The notes beneath the pieces were generated by a model, which worked only from the letters and a program-made list of their open reading frames with translations, had not been told where the DNA came from and did no database searches. A stretch of DNA of 11,876 nucleotides, from positions 1-11,876 of the forward strand of contig SOKD01000055.1 in the NCBI GenBank assembly GCA_004376305.1. Reading direction: 5' to 3'. This DNA is from Candidatus Cloacimonadota bacterium. Its GTDB lineage: Bacteria; Hydrothermota; E44-bin80. The translations under genes were made by a program, and so were the position numbers. Shown here piece after piece: positions 75 to 11,876 of this stretch. The stretch's first letter is position 1. Every line of letters starts with the position of its first letter.

Positions 75-1064
75 TTATAGACCCCGCAAGTCTTCTTTTA
101 TCACCCATCCTTTGTATCGGTACTTCCAAAGTCGTTTAAGCTGGTCTTTAAGGATATAAACCGTAGAAAGATTCTTGTTGATCTCCAAAAGTTCTTTCAG
201 TCTTCTGGACTCCTTTCTCTTAAGGTTTTTCCTGTTTTTAAGCAGTATATATTTCGTCCCTTTTATGACATCTTTGTTTTCACCAAAAGCCTTTTTGTAT
301 TCCCTGTTTCTGACTTTATTGATGACCTTGCCAAATGCCTGAACAACATGGAAAAGATCGAAGACTATGGATGCATCGGGACACCATATGGTAACCGCCT
401 TAATATAAGGATCCCACATATCCATACAAACCGCCTCAATCCGTCTTCGTTCTCTTTTAGGAATCTTCTTAAAGAATCCCTTGAGTGTTTTATACTTCCT
501 CTCTCGCCCTACATGAACAATCCTTCCTGTTTCATAATCAGCCACTATGGTAAGATAGTTGTGTCCCTTCTTAAGCGATATTTCATCAACAGCAAGCACC
601 CTGAGCCCGGAACAGACCTCTTTGCCAAATGCAGATTGAAGATATTCCTTGTGAAGTCTCTTCACCAGCTTTCTGTCAACCTCAAGCAGATATGCTACAT
701 CTGCAACCGTCATATATTTGCACAGGTCCACGATGTATTGAGCAAACCTTCGGGTTATCCTCATATAAAGGTCAATAAAGCCGAGCTTTTCTACCTTTAT
801 GCCCGAGCACGTATGACATCGTATCTTTCTATAGGTATATTCAATAAAAACCTTCGTCCTGAACATATTCATATCCCGCACAATCCTTGTCTCATACGAA
901 TGAATGCTCCGAGTCTTTGTCCCGCATTCAGAACAGACGGGGATATATCTTTCGTCGGGAACCGTCTTAATCAATACCATACTCAGATCATCCGAAACTT
1001 TTTGTTCAACAATTTTCACTTGACGAAACTTAAAAAATGGTGTAACGTTAATTTTGGACATCAT
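75..1064 (-). pseudogene. ISL3-family transposase, C-terminally truncated, probably inactive
   Basis: This is a DDE transposase of the ISL3 type, which would cut and rejoin the ends of its own insertion sequence. Visible parts in order are a zinc-finger-like N-terminus with Cys44/Cys47 and Cys83/Cys86, a helix-turn-helix around 117-140, and the start of the RNase-H-like core. The core carries Asp160 in VDEISLKKGH and Asp236 in the DLFHV motif, the first two catalytic acids as known for the family. The reading frame ends at residue 329 just after the conserved WKYRYKGW. Family members usually run past 400 residues and carry the third catalytic acid, a Glu in an EG-x-NNKIK-like motif, in the missing part. 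Plus positions 18-74 do not encode that part in any frame I checked. Two consecutive ATG codons (1064 and 1061) follow AGGAGG. The second ATG has the better spacing (8 nt). Loss of the catalytic Glu suggests a dead or decaying copy. Confidence 0.8.
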
Positions 1065-2437: not shown

Positions 2438-3829
2438 TTAATTGAGGAGAATCACTTTCCCTGATTCGGTTCTTTCATCGATATTCACTTTAATGAAGTA
2501 AACACCTGCTGAGACAGTATTCCCATTCCAGGCGATAATGTGTGAACCATGATCAAGGGTTTTTGTGAGGAGCGCTGCAATTTTTCTTCCGGTAATGTCA
2601 AAAACAGAAATATCGGTTTTTGCGGCCCTGTTAATCGTCAGGTTGATGTAAATCATGTTTGAAGAAATGGTCGGGAAAATAGTCCAATTCGGATGGTTTA
2701 CGACTTCTCCTTTGTTTGAAACACCACTTCCAGGAACAATATCGCTTGAATCGCGGGGTTCCATCTTAAACTCACCGACTGAGTACATAATTGGTCCGGT
2801 TATCGTATAAGTTTGTCCGGAATCCGGAACGTATGCAACATCCATATCATCGATTATGAGAGGACCCGAACCATCATCTACTTCCCATTGCCCGGAGCCA
2901 AGCGAGTCGTTCGTACAGATTGCATCAAAAATCCTGACAAGTACACTTTCATATTCCTCAACCGATATGCTGCCAGTTTGAAGTACCGTAGGACCGGGAA
3001 TTGAAGCGCCAACGGATAATACATCAACGATTGGTCCTGTTATTTCCGTCATTCCGAAATGTTCAGTAACGATGCCGGTTACTTGAACACTGTCACTTCT
3101 GTTTGGTGCCGATGAACCCCCAAACACGTAAATACCATGCCATGCACTACCTGGCTGCTCTTCAATAAAGAAGTCGTTTCCAAAAACCCCTGTTACAATT
3201 CCATAGGTGACAACAGCAGAATTCACATAAGGAGATGAAGTTGCCTGTCCCTGAATGTCATAGATGCTCAGTGTTTCGGGCGGTGTCCCGGAGCCAAGGT
3301 CTTGCAATGAAGCATCATCAACATAGATGGTTGCGCTGTCGAATGAAGCGCCGACATCATAGAGGCGTACCTCAACATGAGCTGATTCTGCTGAAGGGGG
3401 CGCTAATTGTGGGCCTGAGTTTAGTTGCTGCCAGGCTGTTGAATCGGAGCTGTAAGCACCATAGTAGCCGCTGATGAATCCCCCGCCTGCATTATACCAT
3501 CGTATTACAATGCGAGCGCGACCTTGTTGATCATTGTCAAAGCACCAGAAGTAAAATTCGTAGTCATTACCAGAACTAATACTGCTAACATATTGGGTAA
3601 ATCTTTGTGTACTTGTTGATTTTAGAACAAGTTTTGCACTGAAAGTGCCCGAATGCACAGTTCCTGATTCCCGATACAGGTCATACCCGGATGTTTCACT
3701 ATCCCAGTAATGTGCTGAGTCACCTGTCCAGTCTTCAAATCCTGGATTTTGAAGGATATTCTGCGCCCATAGAAAGGTTCCTGAAAGCAAAAACAGGGGA
3801 AGGATACATATTAGAAAAGAACGTTTCAA
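2438..3829 (-). CDS. Secreted multidomain protein with T9SS-type C-terminal sorting domain
   Basis: This is a predicted exported protein of unknown target. A Sec signal peptide covers about residues 1-22 (charged start, hydrophobic core, cleavage near WAQ). Residues 24-177 look like a carbohydrate-binding jelly-roll of the CBM4/9 type (LQNPGFEDW opening, IYVDDASL close). Residues 187-367 resemble an OB-like beta domain (IVTGVFGNDFFIEE, VQVTGIVTEHFGMTEI), seen in extracellular nuclease-associated and lamin-tail-type proteins. No catalytic domain is recognised. Residues 378-463 form a T9SS type A sorting domain (ISVFDITGRKI, then SAGVYFIKV and GKVILLN). T9SS export across the outer membrane is inferred from that tail. 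Translation starts at TTG, 5 nt after a GGAG core, and the MKRSFLI signal peptide begins exactly there. A well-formed promoter lies upstream. It may bind sugars or cell-surface polymers as an adhesin or scaffold. Confidence 0.8.
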   Translation of the reverse strand: MKRSFLICILPLFLLSGTFLWAQNILQNPGFEDWTGDSAHYWDSETSGYDLYRESGTVHSGTFSAKLVLKSTSTQRFTQYVSSISSGNDYEFYFWCFDNDQQGRARIVIRWYNAGGGFISGYYGAYSSDSTAWQQLNSGPQLAPPSAESAHVEVRLYDVGASFDSATIYVDDASLQDLGSGTPPETLSIYDIQGQATSSPYVNSAVVTYGIVTGVFGNDFFIEEQPGSAWHGIYVFGGSSAPNRSDSVQVTGIVTEHFGMTEITGPIVDVLSVGASIPGPTVLQTGSISVEEYESVLVRIFDAICTNDSLGSGQWEVDDGSGPLIIDDMDVAYVPDSGQTYTITGPIMYSVGEFKMEPRDSSDIVPGSGVSNKGEVVNHPNWTIFPTISSNMIYINLTINRAAKTDISVFDITGRKIAALLTKTLDHGSHIIAWNGNTVSAGVYFIKVNIDERTESGKVILLN

Positions 3830-4511: not shown

Positions 4512-5714
4512 TTATTGCAGTGTTTTTCTTACCCTGACGATTTGTTTATTGATCCTGTCATGGATCAAGCAGGAAATTTCTTTTTCAGAAGAGAAATATT
4601 GCTGATACACTTCAGTATTATAGAGATCGAAACGGATTTGTACTTTCTGATCAAGTGCAACGATCTGGTTTGTTCCTGAACCAGCAATATACAGAAGACG
4701 TGTTCCAGTGGGGTCAAAAACAAGAGGTCTTCCTTCCTTGAAACATTCGTTTATTGTGGAAAAATTTGGATCGAATGATGGTATTTCTTTACCGTCGAAA
4801 AGAAGCCCTGCCTTGTTCATTGGTGGTTTGAATATAACCAGAGCATAGTGAAGATCATCTTCAGAGAAGGAAATACTGTTAGTGAATATATCGGATGCAG
4901 AGTATACAATTACCCCATCATATTTTATTTTTAGATCGCCAGATGCTCTGTCGTTCTGTACAAGAACATAGTGTTCACCTTTTTCGGATAGAGCAAATAG
5001 CACAACACTATTTTTTGAATCAAATGAAATTTTTACTGCTCCGTCAATAAGTACCGCGTTCTTGTTCTTTCCTTCGCGGATGATAGCACCGTAGTGTTTT
5101 CCGTCCCCTGAAATGGCAAGGAAAAAAGGAATGTCCTTTATCTTCTTTTTCTTGCCATCAAAAACCAGATAATCACCTGTTCCATCAATCGACCAGAAAA
5201 GCAGGTGGTTGCCGTTCTTACTTACTTCTGGTTTTGATGAATAAGGTGAAGCATCTATCGGTTTATTGTTCTTGTATACCTTTTTCATATTCTTGGGTTC
5301 TTTTTTGGTATAAATAACAGAACCATCGTTGAGTAACTGGATGGTTTTGAATTCTTTATCTCGCCTGATAATTGTCTTTGATTTATAATGTGCGATTTCC
5401 TCTCCATCTTTTACTACTATCTCGCTTTTACCATCGGTGGCAAGATATGCATAGTGTGTTCCGTCTGGGCTCAGGCAAAGCGCATCGATAATGAGGTACG
5501 TTTTATCTGTGTTCCCGTTGTAAATAACTGCCTCGCCCTCTGTCCCTTCTTTAATAAAAGCAAAATGTTCTCCATCCCGCGAGAAGATAATAGAACAATC
5601 TTTGACTTTTGTCTCAAGTGGTATCTGGTAAAGAACGTCTTTCTTCTCCCCTGCGCATGAAAACAGGATGGCAATGATTGCTATACAGAATATACAGGAA
5701 ATCAGTTTTTTCAT
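4512..5714 (-). CDS. Lipoprotein with eightfold repeats, probable beta-propeller
   Basis: This is a predicted lipoprotein of unknown function. Residues 1-19 are a hydrophobic signal and LFSC ends at Cys20, a workable lipobox, so the mature protein should be lipid-anchored in the envelope. The rest is built of about eight units. Each has a motif of the form S-x-D-G-x-H-Y-A at 45, 82, about 127 (degenerate), 165, 202, 243, 284 and 334. About 16-20 residues later comes a second motif of the form h-x-D-G-K-x-I, at roughly 65, 101, 147, 184, 222, 264, 305 and 353. The spacing of 37-50 residues and the DG turns resemble PD40/TolB-like propeller blades, so a seven- or eight-bladed propeller is likely. 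No catalytic residues are evident; a binding or scaffold role is plausible. GGGAGGT stands 6 nt before ATG 5714. The gene follows ruvA by 94 nt on the same strand. Confidence 0.75.
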   Translation of the reverse strand: MKKLISCIFCIAIIAILFSCAGEKKDVLYQIPLETKVKDCSIIFSRDGEHFAFIKEGTEGEAVIYNGNTDKTYLIIDALCLSPDGTHYAYLATDGKSEIVVKDGEEIAHYKSKTIIRRDKEFKTIQLLNDGSVIYTKKEPKNMKKVYKNNKPIDASPYSSKPEVSKNGNHLLFWSIDGTGDYLVFDGKKKKIKDIPFFLAISGDGKHYGAIIREGKNKNAVLIDGAVKISFDSKNSVVLFALSEKGEHYVLVQNDRASGDLKIKYDGVIVYSASDIFTNSISFSEDDLHYALVIFKPPMNKAGLLFDGKEIPSFDPNFSTINECFKEGRPLVFDPTGTRLLYIAGSGTNQIVALDQKVQIRFDLYNTEVYQQYFSSEKEISCLIHDRINKQIVRVRKTLQ

Positions 5715-7602: not shown

Positions 7603-8994
7603 ATGACTTGTAACGATGTTAGGGTGAAGGTTTTGCATTATATTAAGGATAAATCACTCATTGAATCAGGTGAGCGAATACTCGTTGCTGTTTCTGGAGG
7701 ACCCGATTCTATGCTTCTCATGCACATATTAAATGGCTATAAATCTGAGCTTAATATCAGCCTTGTATGTTGTCACGTTAACCATCAACTGAGAGATGTG
7801 GCTTCAAATCGGGATGAATTGTTTGTCAGGAATGTTTGCCGCCAGATAGGGGTCCCGTTTGTTTCAAAAAGGATTAATGTCTCCGCATTGAGTAAGGAAA
7901 AACATATTTCCATTGAGGACGCAGCACGACAGCTAAGGCTTGGTGCACTTTATGACATTGCAGAAGAAAGAAAATGTCAAAAGATTGGTGTTGGGCACAC
8001 ATCGGACGATACTATGGAAACCTTTATCCTGAATATATTGAGAGGAACTGGAAGGAAAGGACTCTCAGGAATTCATCCAAAGCGGGGAAAATTCATCCAT
8101 CCACTACTGTGCTTGAAAAAACGGGAAGTTCTGCACTATCTGAAAAATCACCATATAGATTATCAGATCGATGTAACGAATTGGAGAAGTGACAACAGAA
8201 GGAACTTTATAAGAAGGGAGCTCGTTCCCCTTATTGAAAAAAAGTTCAACAAGAGAGTGAAGGACAATATTTTACAACTAATAAAAATCATTATTGATGA
8301 GGAGGATTTGCTCTCAACCTTAACGGGTAAAACATTAGAAGGTTTACAAAAAGAGAGAGATGAAGGCATAGTCTTTGACAGGGATAGCATCAAAGCACTT
8401 CATCCCGCAATCCAGCGAAGGATACTGATAAGAAGTTTCGAAAAGTTAGCGGGTGAGATGAGGTTGAACTTCAAGGAAATTGAGGCTTTGCGAACTGCAA
8501 TAATCAGTGATTGCTCAGGAATGGTATTTCCATACCATGGAATTATCTTTCTTATCGGTGCTAATTCTATCCTTGTTCGGGTGGAAAGCAGGAAAAAGGA
8601 GGTAAGAGAGGATATCCATGCATGCCTTTCTATTCCTGGAAGCATAAGGTTTCAAAACCGTTATCTTATCAAAACAACAGTCCTTGAACAAATTAATGGT
8701 AATATTGATAGTCGTGATTGTGTTTATTACGATCTTGATTTGATTCAGCAGCCGCTGATTATACGGACGAGGAACAATGGCGATACCTTTATACCATTTG
8801 GCATGCATCAAAAGAAGAAGGTTAAAGAATTTTTTATTGATGCAAAAGTTCCCTTCTGGGAACGGGATGAAATTCCAATTATTGCGGATGAAAAAGGAAT
8901 TTTGTGGATAGCAGGATTGAGAAGGGCGGATAGTGCAAAAGTCAGGAAGGATACGGAACGAATTTTAAAAATAGAAAAGAGGTATATTGGATAA
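7603..8994 (+). CDS. tilS: tRNA(Ile)-lysidine synthetase
   Basis: TilS joins lysine to C34 of the CAU anticodon of a minor tRNA-Ile using ATP. This makes the tRNA read AUA and accept isoleucine, an essential step in most bacteria. The PP-loop SGGPDS at residues 31-36 starts the N-terminal ATPase domain. GHTSDDTMET at 131-140, RGTGRKGLSGI at 147-157 and a family-typical NWRSDNRRNFIRREL at 193-207 follow. The middle region (about 215-330) corresponds to the substrate-binding linker. The C-terminal domain (about 383-457) has the typical GDTFIPFGMHQKKKVKEFF and WIAGLRRADSAKV. At 463 residues it is a full-length long-form enzyme. Its end overlaps the start of hpt by 8 nt, so the two are translationally coupled. 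tilS-hpt-ftsH is a conserved order in many bacteria. Confidence 0.95.
   Translation: MTCNDVRVKVLHYIKDKSLIESGERILVAVSGGPDSMLLMHILNGYKSELNISLVCCHVNHQLRDVASNRDELFVRNVCRQIGVPFVSKRINVSALSKEKHISIEDAARQLRLGALYDIAEERKCQKIGVGHTSDDTMETFILNILRGTGRKGLSGIHPKRGKFIHPLLCLKKREVLHYLKNHHIDYQIDVTNWRSDNRRNFIRRELVPLIEKKFNKRVKDNILQLIKIIIDEEDLLSTLTGKTLEGLQKERDEGIVFDRDSIKALHPAIQRRILIRSFEKLAGEMRLNFKEIEALRTAIISDCSGMVFPYHGIIFLIGANSILVRVESRKKEVREDIHACLSIPGSIRFQNRYLIKTTVLEQINGNIDSRDCVYYDLDLIQQPLIIRTRNNGDTFIPFGMHQKKKVKEFFIDAKVPFWERDEIPIIADEKGILWIAGLRRADSAKVRKDTERILKIEKRYIG
8977..8982 (+). promoter_or_regulatory. Ribosome binding site inside the tilS end, supporting TTG start of hpt
   Basis: AAGAGG lies 4 nt before TTG 8987, within the last codons of tilS. 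No in-frame ATG lies before residue 20 of hpt, and the reading from TTG (MDKKTKRLLGKGEI) gives a normal family N-terminus. Confidence 0.55.
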
Positions 8995-9510: not shown

Positions 9511-11163
9511 ATGGAAACAAAGGGAAAAAATACAAGAAAACAGTCTTCAAACACTATGTGGAAGGGTATTTTTGTCTGGGTAAGTATCATACTGCTTCTT
9601 ATGGTTGCCGTGGGTATTTTCAACCAGAAGAAGAAGGTTGAAGTTAAAATAAGTTTCTCGAAATTTTTAAGTGAGGTTGAAAGCGGAAATGTTGAAACAG
9701 TAACAATTTATAACCTGGGTATGCAAGGTAAGCTGAAAACTGCAGTGACCGTAAAAGGGAAAGAAGGAATGATTCAGTTTGATAAGTTCAAAACTCGGAT
9801 GCCATTTGAAGATTCAGAGCTCCCTAAATACCTTGCAGGAAGGGGGGTTGAAGTTGAATCACGGTCAAACTTCGGAAATGTTATACAGAATGCAACCGCT
9901 AATGTTATACAAACAGCAGGTGCAACCCAGGCAGTAACCTCAACGGCAACACCCAAAGGCGGCATTCTGGTAACCGGGGCTACCTATGATGCAAGATGGC
10001 AAACGATCAAAGATGGAAGTGATGATATGCCCGTTTACAATTACGATATCTATCTGCAGCCAGATTCACTGCTCCTTTCGGATATTGATGCTTTCGTAGA
10101 ACTCGCATCAGTATTCGTCTCTGCAACTGAATCGGTAACCGTTGACACAAGTGGTGATACCATCACAACAACAACACAGTACGATTCCCTCTTTGCAGTA
10201 AACACAGATGGTAGTTTCGTATCACCATTCTTTGACGGAATTGAATACGGAGGTTCAATCAGCGTCCACTATGCTGATTCAACCCATACCGTTGTTCATG
10301 CAGAAGCTGTCATTGCAGACACCGATACAGTAATCACTGAAACAATATCCGCTGTGACAACAATCGTTCTCACGGCAGATTCCATCGCGGTAACAACAGA
10401 CCAGGGTGTCATCTATACGGATACTCTCACAATTGATGGTATTCATAATCCCTGGGCATTCAGGGGTGGTGTAACCTATGAAATCCGTTGGAAAACCATC
10501 AACGCAGATACGATTACGGCAACCATATATGATGTCACCAACAATGTTACCGTTCCATTCGGAGCCACATGGGGAGACAACTGGAGCTTCGGACCGGTGA
10601 GCTTCTCAAATCCTGATGTCAATTCAATGTATCTTGCATCTGATAACCTTTCATCCAGGACATACTTCTATATCTGCGGCACCAAATTCTACTTCAATTT
10701 TGCAGGCAGCGAAGCATATCCGATGAATTGGAGCAACCATCCTGTTGATGGTGAGGAATGGACAGTCTATTGCTCAGGTGATGTGGTTCCAACAGCAGGA
10801 AACGAATTTACGATAACCAGCACCGCCTTCGTCTTCGGTGAACGGACACTTGATAATATAATGGTGGTACCGAATCCTTACATTGTCAGAAATCCATGGG
10901 AAGTCAGCAGTGACTATGCAGTATTGAGATTTACCAATCTCCCTGATGAATGCACAATAAGGATATACACGCTCGGAGGAAATCTTATTAAGACAATGGA
11001 ACATAAGGTTGAAGCCACTGCTGCGAGCGCAATACAGGGTGGAAGCGAAAAATGGGATGTTCTTACAGATAACAATCAGAGACCGGCAAGCGGAATCTAT
11101 ATTTATCACATCTTAACACCTGACGGAGATACAAAAACTGGTAAGTTTGCTCTGATACGATAA
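9511..11163 (+). CDS. In-frame chimera: FtsH N-terminus joined to the C-terminal part of a T9SS-type surface protein
   Basis: Residues 1 to about 122 read as the N-terminus of the membrane protease FtsH. A basic start leads into a transmembrane helix (17-37) and a periplasmic domain (KISFSKFLSEVESGNVETVTI at 46-66, YLAGRGVEVESRS at 107-119). The second helix, the AAA+ module (Walker A/B) and the HExxH zinc protease are absent, so this cannot be a working FtsH. Residues 123-550 are a Thr/Asp-rich beta protein ending in a T9SS/FlgD-like tail (MVVPNPYIVRNPWE at 451-464, CTIRIYTLGGNLIKT, NQRPASGIYIYHI, TGKFALIR). Such tails normally close much larger secreted proteins whose own N-terminus is missing here. 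Lysine is 16 of 122 in the first part but 9 of 428 in the second. ATG 9511 has GGAG 8 nt upstream. The protein would be anchored with its C-terminus in the periplasm. It is either a recombination product or an assembly chimera. Confidence 0.75.
   Translation: METKGKNTRKQSSNTMWKGIFVWVSIILLLMVAVGIFNQKKKVEVKISFSKFLSEVESGNVETVTIYNLGMQGKLKTAVTVKGKEGMIQFDKFKTRMPFEDSELPKYLAGRGVEVESRSNFGNVIQNATANVIQTAGATQAVTSTATPKGGILVTGATYDARWQTIKDGSDDMPVYNYDIYLQPDSLLLSDIDAFVELASVFVSATESVTVDTSGDTITTTTQYDSLFAVNTDGSFVSPFFDGIEYGGSISVHYADSTHTVVHAEAVIADTDTVITETISAVTTIVLTADSIAVTTDQGVIYTDTLTIDGIHNPWAFRGGVTYEIRWKTINADTITATIYDVTNNVTVPFGATWGDNWSFGPVSFSNPDVNSMYLASDNLSSRTYFYICGTKFYFNFAGSEAYPMNWSNHPVDGEEWTVYCSGDVVPTAGNEFTITSTAFVFGERTLDNIMVVPNPYIVRNPWEVSSDYAVLRFTNLPDECTIRIYTLGGNLIKTMEHKVEATAASAIQGGSEKWDVLTDNNQRPASGIYIYHILTPDGDTKTGKFALIR
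9877..9911 (+). repeat. Short direct repeat at the FtsH/surface-protein junction
   Basis: The 11-base word aatgttataca occurs at 9877-9887 and again at 9901-9911, 24 bp apart and in the same frame. It encodes NVIQ at residues 123-126 and 131-134. It starts directly after the last residues that look like FtsH (SRSNFG). It may be an ordinary two-unit repeat of the surface protein, or the scar of a recombination event. Confidence 0.45.
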
Positions 11164-11190: not shown

Positions 11191-11876
11191 ATGATAAAGA
11201 AGATTACATTGCTGGCGGTTCTCCTGCTGCTCACTGCATCCTTATCTTTCGCAGCCTTTTCCAAACTCGGAACAGCAGGTGCTCAGTTCCTGAAAATTGG
11301 TGTTGGTGCAAGGGGTCCCGCAATGGCAGGCGCATTTACTGCAGTCGTTGATGACGCTTCGGCTCTCTACTGGAACCCAGCCGCCGCCGCAAATATCACC
11401 AGGAATGAACTCCTGGTGAGTGATGTTGAATGGGTGCTTGATATCCGCAACAATTTCTTCTCCTATGTGAAACCAATGGGAATGTTAGGCAACATTGGCT
11501 TTGGACTTACACTCCTCACCATGGGCTCAATGGATGTAACAACCGTGTACGAACCCGATGGCACAGGAGAAACATTCGGTGCAAGTGATATTGCAGCCAC
11601 TGTGAATTATTCAAAACGATTCACCGATATGTTTTCATTCGGGATGAACATCAAGTGGATTCAGCAAAACATATGGGATATGTCAGCGAATGGCATTGCC
11701 TTTGATTTCGGAACGCTTTACAAGCCAACGTTCATAAAAAACTTCAAACTTGCATTTGTTGTTGAAAACTTTGGTCCCGAAATGGTCTTCAAAGGCGGTC
11801 ACCTTCAAACAGAGCTTAAAGAGGATGACTGGTATGGTGCAGACCAACCAGTGGAATTGAGCGCAACATCTTATGC
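11191..11876 (+). CDS. PorV/PorQ-family outer-membrane protein, 5' part (runs off the window)
   Basis: Only the first 228 complete codons lie in the window; the frame is open at the edge. A signal peptide covers residues 1-20 (MIKKITLLAVLLLLTASLSF, then A-A-F-S). The mature start SKLGTAGAQFLKIGVGARGP and the motif ALYWNPAA at 58-65 are typical of PorV/PorQ-like (UPF0164-related, FadL-like) beta-barrels. Alternating hydrophobic strands follow (IGFGLTLLTM, FSFGMNIKW, FKLAFVVENFGP). PorV is known in the type IX secretion system as the outer-membrane shuttle that takes cargo from the translocon to the attachment complex; PorQ-like members are less defined. In candidate FCB phyla such genes often follow genes for sorting-domain proteins, as here. 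Whether this copy is PorV proper or a paralogue cannot be told from the part seen. Confidence 0.85.
   Translation, partial: MIKKITLLAVLLLLTASLSFAAFSKLGTAGAQFLKIGVGARGPAMAGAFTAVVDDASALYWNPAAAANITRNELLVSDVEWVLDIRNNFFSYVKPMGMLGNIGFGLTLLTMGSMDVTTVYEPDGTGETFGASDIAATVNYSKRFTDMFSFGMNIKWIQQNIWDMSANGIAFDFGTLYKPTFIKNFKLAFVVENFGPEMVFKGGHLQTELKEDDWYGADQPVELSATSY

What the first reader, a model, noticed from the sequence alone, without database searches (positions are those of the whole stretch)
9511..11163. FtsH N-terminal domain fused in frame to a type-IX-targeted surface protein, replacing ftsH in the tilS-hpt-ftsH operon
Behind tilS-hpt the expected ftsH begins normally and then changes after about residue 122 into a Thr/Asp-rich secreted domain with a C-terminal sorting tail. 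Both parents are incomplete: FtsH lacks its ATPase and protease, and the surface protein lacks its signal peptide and N-terminal bulk. The join is in frame and falls where FtsH's second membrane helix should start. The product would therefore keep one anchor and place the surface domain in the periplasm, the right side for export. If real, this is a new anchored substrate design, and the cell would need another FtsH. If not, it is a chimeric assembly of two loci.
Basis: partly seen in the sequence, partly recalled or inferred. Interest (0 to 1): 0.75.

Follow-up and report, generated by a model that had tools for sequence, protein, structure and literature searches.

The report
Artificial join of two separate genes
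The apparent fusion of a membrane protease start with a secreted surface protein is almost certainly two ordinary genes wrongly joined in a fragmented genome assembly, because close relatives carry both genes whole and apart, and the protease's missing half begins at the very end of another contig of the same genome.

Summary
The reading frame at 9511-11163 (550 aa) is real: residues 1 to about 118 are the start of FtsH, the rest is the last ~440 residues of a T9SS-type surface protein. The three same-family relatives found carry both as separate, intact genes on separate contigs: FtsH (631-640 aa) directly after hpt, and a 980-995 aa surface protein before a PorV-family gene. In the window's own genome (400 contigs, 77.6% complete) the rest of ftsH (AAA plus M41) lies on contig C289, cut off by the contig end. 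G001's FtsH matches it at residues 207-633 and the window at 1-122: complementary, without overlap. Only one M41 gene is found, as in most relatives. Among 147 genomes of the phylum, only this one matches both sides of the join over their length. The switch falls within about 10 bases (9860-9869) where both parents fit, in the same frame. A chimera, from library preparation or assembly, is the best explanation (0.92). A true inversion cutting both genes is not excluded without reads. A designed, anchored secretion substrate is very unlikely.

The parts
7603..8994 (+). tilS, tRNA(Ile) lysidine synthetase; left flank, collinear with relatives
   Evidence: Pfam ATP_bind_3 and TilS_C; 54-56% identical to the gene before hpt-ftsH in G001, G002, G003
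   Evidence: Pfam Pribosyltran; 74-77% identical to the gene directly before intact ftsH in 3 relatives
9511..9869 (+). 5' part of ftsH (residues 1 to about 118): first membrane helix and periplasmic domain; its continuation belongs with contig C289
   Evidence: FtsH_ext; 60-66% identical to the N-termini of intact FtsH of G001-G003; base-by-base comparison
9860..9869 (+). join: 10 bases in which the sequence fits both parents (9868 fits neither); 9857-9859 fit only ftsH, 9870-9872 only the surface gene
   Evidence: a base counts as fitting if any of three relatives has it
9862..11163 (+). 3' part (last ~440 residues) of a surface-protein gene; relatives are 980-995 aa with a signal-peptide-like start
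   Evidence: 68-75% identical to the C-terminal parts of full-length genes in G001-G003; no close match to the N-terminal 539 residues in the bin
11191..11876 (+). PorV/PorQ-family gene, cut by the contig end; follows the surface-protein gene in relatives too
   Evidence: NF033709 137.7 bits; 82% identical to G001 PorV over its residues 4-237 of 349; gene order; contig length 11876

Best explanation
The ORF is a chimera made by a false join, not a gene of the organism. The real genome very probably has an ordinary ftsH in tilS-hpt-ftsH-folE-folP and, elsewhere, an ordinary TonB receptor - ~980 aa surface protein - PorV operon. A template switch during amplification or library preparation, or a mis-join by the assembler, connected ftsH at about codon 118 to the surface gene where both read nearly the same ten bases in the same frame; this also explains why the frame stays open. 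Shown: the complementary parts, the intact separate genes in relatives, and that no other genome searched has the junction. Inferred: the order in the real genome, and the step (library or assembly) at which the join arose.
For: (1) In G001, G002 and G003, the only same-family relatives among the 60 genomes, the query splits into two genes on different contigs: residues 1-122 (G003: 4-122) in ftsH ORFs, and residues 112-550 (G001), 99-550 (G002), 115-550 (G003) in ~1000 aa surface ORFs. (2) The own genome's only M41 match is on C289, whose frame is cut by the contig end just before Walker A, with a stop codon in that motif 25-27 bases from the end, which suggests a poor contig edge. G001 FtsH matches C289 at residues 207-633 and the window at 1-122: no overlap. 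The next genes on C289 (folE, folP, cdaA by eye) are those that follow ftsH in G001. (3) M41 is single-copy in the relatives: 56 of 60 genomes (own included) have it, 55 with one match and one (G017) with two complementary pieces on two contigs. (4) Phylum search with a 160-aa piece across the junction (join at its residues 67-70): 90 of 147 genomes match, and only the own genome matches both sides over their length. (5) In 15-base bins identity to ftsH falls from 0.87 (9847-9861) to 0.13-0.20 (9877-9891), while identity to the surface gene goes from 0.33-0.47 to 0.53-0.67, with 0.60-0.93 in the bin between. (6) Left of the join, 164-aa gene, ruvA, HDAC, tilS and hpt lie in the same order in G001 C92, which lacks only the window's 400-aa gene at 4512-5714; right of it, surface then PorV matches G001-G003.
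Against: No reads or coverage could be examined. The shared stretch is far shorter than an assembler k-mer (general knowledge), so a pure de Bruijn graph error is not the obvious cause; a chimeric library molecule would have to have won over true molecules. Parent-to-parent likeness at the join is modest: in relatives 8-9 of 18 bases, reached by 3-9% of in-frame position pairs. The ~84 missing FtsH residues and the surface protein's first 539 residues were not found in the bin, so the reconnection is inferred from relatives, not seen.
Confidence: 0.92

Rival explanations
1. A true chromosomal inversion of about 12 kb in this organism (or in part of its population) with break points inside ftsH and inside the surface gene. 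It would give this ORF and, at the other end, the reciprocal surface N-terminus - FtsH C-terminus fusion.
For: Combining two contigs of two genomes puts the parents on opposite strands near one another: own C289 reads ftsH-folE-folP-cdaA-840 aa gene-sigma factor, and G001 C85 reads sigma-antisigma-htrA followed by PorV and the surface gene on the other strand. An inversion between them gives exactly the orientation seen.
Against: In G003 htrA is followed by a 1074-aa gene (ileS by eye), not PorV, so this order is not general and is composite for the own genome. The reciprocal junction is not seen: C289 ends inside ftsH. It would break the only ftsH found. The same geometry is what inverted amplification chimeras give (PMC4595205).
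Confidence: 0.06
2. A functional fused protein: FtsH's first membrane helix anchors a T9SS-tailed surface domain in the periplasm, replacing ftsH in the operon.
For: The frame is open, in frame, and joined just before FtsH's second membrane helix.
Against: No other genome of the 147 searched in the phylum matches both sides of the junction over their length; both halves are incomplete while intact parents exist in 3 of 3 same-family relatives found; the rest of ftsH is cut by a contig end in the same bin. From general knowledge, T9SS substrates lose their signal peptide and are free in the periplasm before export; an uncleaved inner-membrane anchor would block that. The one paper search made for such a design listed 2 papers, neither about it by title and start of abstract.
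Confidence: 0.02

Closest known systems
FtsH, ATP-dependent zinc metalloprotease (TIGR01241; Pfam FtsH_ext, AAA, M41)
   Same: Residues 1 to ~118 are the FtsH N-terminus, in the place where relatives have ftsH, after tilS-hpt.
   Different: Second membrane helix, AAA and M41 are missing here; AAA (profile 38-130 of 131 in the stretch scanned) and M41 are found on C289.
T9SS-type surface protein of 980-995 aa encoded before a PorV-family gene (G001 C85, G002 C262, G003 C353)
   Same: The last ~440 residues are 68-75% identical, with the same C-terminal tail and the same PorV neighbour.
   Different: The signal-peptide-like start and first ~540 residues are absent here.
Chimeric junctions of multiple displacement amplification (PMC4595205; passages read, including of its abstract)
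   Same: Short overlap at the join: that paper reports a peak at 6 nt, mostly 5-8 nt; here at most ~10 bases fit both parents. Parents may lie on opposite strands, the most numerous kind there.
   Different: Whether this genome came from amplified DNA is unknown; the inferred ~12 kb separation is longer than most distances there (0 to over 5,000 nt, peak 250-300 nt).

Membership tests
FtsH protease | N-terminal FtsH_ext domain | tested here: met
   39.9 bits, cut-off 25.5
FtsH protease | AAA domain and M41 zinc protease in the same chain | tested here: not met
   No match in the ORF; present at the end of contig C289
T9SS substrate | C-terminal sorting domain over cut-off | tested here: inconclusive
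   TIGR04183 22.3 bits, cut-off 23; of three full-length relatives two score 20.6 and 21.0, the third was not listed at E up to 0.01
T9SS substrate | Cleavable N-terminal signal peptide | tested here: not met
   By eye only: the ORF begins with FtsH's first membrane helix, whereas relatives' surface genes begin with a signal-peptide-like hydrophobic stretch; no signal-peptide program was run
T9SS substrate | T9SS (SprA) present in the lineage | tested here: met
   SprA TIGR04189 over cut-off in 17 of 20 genomes, the 3 same-family relatives among them; no match in the incomplete own genome
Natural gene fusion | Same junction in a second genome | tested here: not met
   Of 147 phylum genomes searched, 90 match some part, only the own one both sides over their length; the scan of named genome contigs gave 4 loci, 3 surface genes and 1 ftsH, no fusion
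Assembly or amplification chimera | Complementary remainder of a parent gene at another contig end | tested here: met
   For ftsH: C289 ends inside it; G001 FtsH residues 207-633 there, 1-122 in the window. For the surface gene: not met, its N-terminal part is not in the bin
Assembly or amplification chimera | Missing read support or coverage step at the join | not testable with these tools
   No reads available

The most novel reading that the evidence does not exclude
A real ~12 kb inversion between short matching sequences in ftsH and a surface-protein gene, present in the organism or a subpopulation, which swaps the two genes' ends in frame and so yields two reciprocal hybrid proteins.
Probability: 0.05. 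Interest if true: 0.5.

Novelty: not a real feature. Interest (0 to 1): 0.05.

Why it matters
It matters mainly as a warning: an in-frame, plausible-looking fusion in a fragmented genome can be a mis-join, and it would enter protein databases as a false FtsH-surface protein. The tell-tale is the complementary part of a single-copy gene starting at another contig's end.

Tried and rejected
Other FtsH copy in the genome: none found. The M41 family finds only C289; G001's FtsH finds C289, the window's N-terminus and one chance-level match (E 0.104, two stops inside).

Rest of the surface protein in the bin: G001's full-length protein finds the window's C-terminal part (75%) and otherwise only matches of 30-38% identity. 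Orthologs of the TonB receptor and htrA that flank the operon in G001 are not in the bin either: its matches are 31-41% identical. The remaining PorV C-terminus is missing too; the next best PorV match is 39%.

Overlap of C289 with the window: no shared word of 15 bases on either strand with the 2,721-base piece L001, which includes the C289 end; some 12-base words are shared.

Other long FtsH-like ORFs as natural fusions: G052 (814 aa) and G105 (855 aa) run through stretches of N into other proteins, so they are no evidence of fusions; whether the N are assembly gaps or masking is not known.

Strength of microhomology: parents in relatives share 8-9 of 18 bases at the join, not rare (3-9% of in-frame pairs), so the shared bases explain the position only weakly.

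Papers: three searches. Passages of one paper (PMC4595205) were read; the others were seen only as listings. No structure was predicted, as the protein is probably not real.

Full report
What is there. The window is the whole of contig C107 (11,876 bases) of a 400-contig, 1.75 Mb, 77.6% complete genome. The ORF at 9511-11163 exists as described. Residues 20-118 match Pfam FtsH_ext above its cut-off; no FtsH ATPase or protease domain was listed, and one further match (DUF3048_C, residues 257-354) is below its cut-off. The tail is close to, but just under, the cut-off of the T9SS type A sorting domain. The next gene is a PorV/PorQ-family protein cut by the contig end.

Relatives. A search of 60 genomes (own included) with the whole ORF gave hits in 59 (its list of matches was cut short). 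In the three same-family relatives the query falls into two genes on two contigs: ftsH ORFs matched at residues 1-122 (G001, G002) or 4-122 (G003) with 60-66% identity, and surface-protein ORFs of about 1000 codons matched at residues 112-550 (G001), 99-550 (G002) and 115-550 (G003) with 68-75% identity. Reading those loci: tilS-hpt-ftsH (640, 631 and 638 aa, intact)-folE in all three, with folP next in G001 and, cut by the contig end, in G002; G003's ftsH contig ends after folE. Separately, a TonB receptor - surface protein (980, 981, 995 aa) - PorV in all three; in G002 both the receptor and PorV are cut by contig ends. The names folE, folP, cdaA, ruvA, HDAC, sigma, antisigma, htrA and ileS are by eye and come from no family search; TilS, the TonB receptor (G001), FtsH and the window's PorV-family gene were tested. 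That scan gave 4 loci, 3 surface genes (query residues 86-550, 86-550 and 115-550) and 1 ftsH (1-122), no fusion; the own genome may be left out of it.

The missing half. The own genome holds one M41 match, on C289. Its reading frame runs to the contig end and contains a stop inside the Walker A motif, 25-27 bases from the end. G001's FtsH matches the window at residues 1-122 and C289 at 207-633: two non-overlapping parts of one gene, with about 84 residues missing between them. folE, folP and cdaA follow on C289 as in G001. M41 occurs in 56 of 60 genomes, 55 with one match and G017 with two complementary pieces on two contigs; 4 have none.

The join. Aligned codon by codon with the three relatives, bases 9857-9859 fit only ftsH and 9870-9872 only the surface gene; in between, 9860-9869 fit both, save 9868, which fits neither. 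Further out single bases fit either parent, as expected by chance (9855, for one, fits only the surface gene). Identity in 15-base bins switches between 9847-9861 and 9877-9891. Both parents read the shared codons in the same frame, which keeps the frame open; no selection for a fusion is needed. Parents' likeness there is modest in relatives (8-9 of 18 bases, reached by 3-9% of in-frame pairs).

The flanks. Left of the join the window's 164-aa gene, ruvA, HDAC, tilS and hpt lie in the same order in G001 C92; the window's 400-aa gene at 4512-5714 has no match there, and the two genes next to the left (1359-2345 and 2438-3829) have none in the loci compared. Right of the join, surface then PorV is the order of G001-G003.

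Is the junction found elsewhere? A 160-residue piece across it, with the join at its residues 67-70, was searched in 147 genomes of the phylum: 90 match. FtsH-type matches end at or before residue 80; surface-type matches begin at 59 (G001), 65 (G003) and 45 (G002, 54% identity, in its surface gene). So some matches pass the join by 10 to 25 residues, but only the own genome matches both sides over their length. The large protein database could not be asked.

How it arose. Own C289 runs ftsH-folE-folP-cdaA-840 aa gene (DUF2723-like, a name recalled)-sigma, and G001 C85 runs sigma-antisigma-htrA, then PorV and the surface gene on the opposite strand. If the own genome shares that order, the parents lie roughly 12 kb apart in inverted orientation (my sum of lengths from those loci). 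G003, however, has a 1074-residue gene (ileS by eye) after htrA, so the order is not general. Inverted parents with a join of 5-8 shared bases are typical of phi29 amplification chimeras, although the distances reported run from 0 to over 5,000 nt with a peak at 250-300 (PMC4595205, passages). A real inversion would have the same geometry; it would break the only ftsH found, and its reciprocal junction is not seen. I therefore put 0.92 on a chimera, 0.06 on a real rearrangement and 0.02 on a functional fusion.

Verdict. The bold reading is not.

Noticed in passing
window 75-1064 (-): ISL3-family transposase gene near the contig's left end; the DDE match stops at profile position 164 of 240, so the gene looks shortened.
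   Followed up: no
window 2438-3829 (-): A 463-aa protein with a clear T9SS type A sorting domain (TIGR04183 40.5 bits, Pfam Por_Secre_tail 34.8), a likelier T9SS cargo in the same window.
   Followed up: partly
L042 7238-7240 (G000 C289): In-frame stop in the Walker A motif of the ftsH fragment 25-27 bases from the contig end; probably an edge error.
   Followed up: partly
L090 377-2821 (G052 C2); L091 632-3199 (G105 C1): Two other over-long FtsH ORFs in the phylum run through stretches of N into unrelated proteins (one tail looks like a dihydrodipicolinate synthase, one like a prolyl oligopeptidase, by eye): artificial fusions if annotated.
   Followed up: partly
L081 and L079: In G001 htrA is followed by PorV on the other strand, in G003 by a 1074-aa gene that looks like ileS: different neighbours in genomes of one family.
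   Followed up: no
window 4512-5714 (-): A 400-aa gene present here between the 164-aa gene and ruvA has no match in G001 C92, where those two are neighbours.
   Followed up: no
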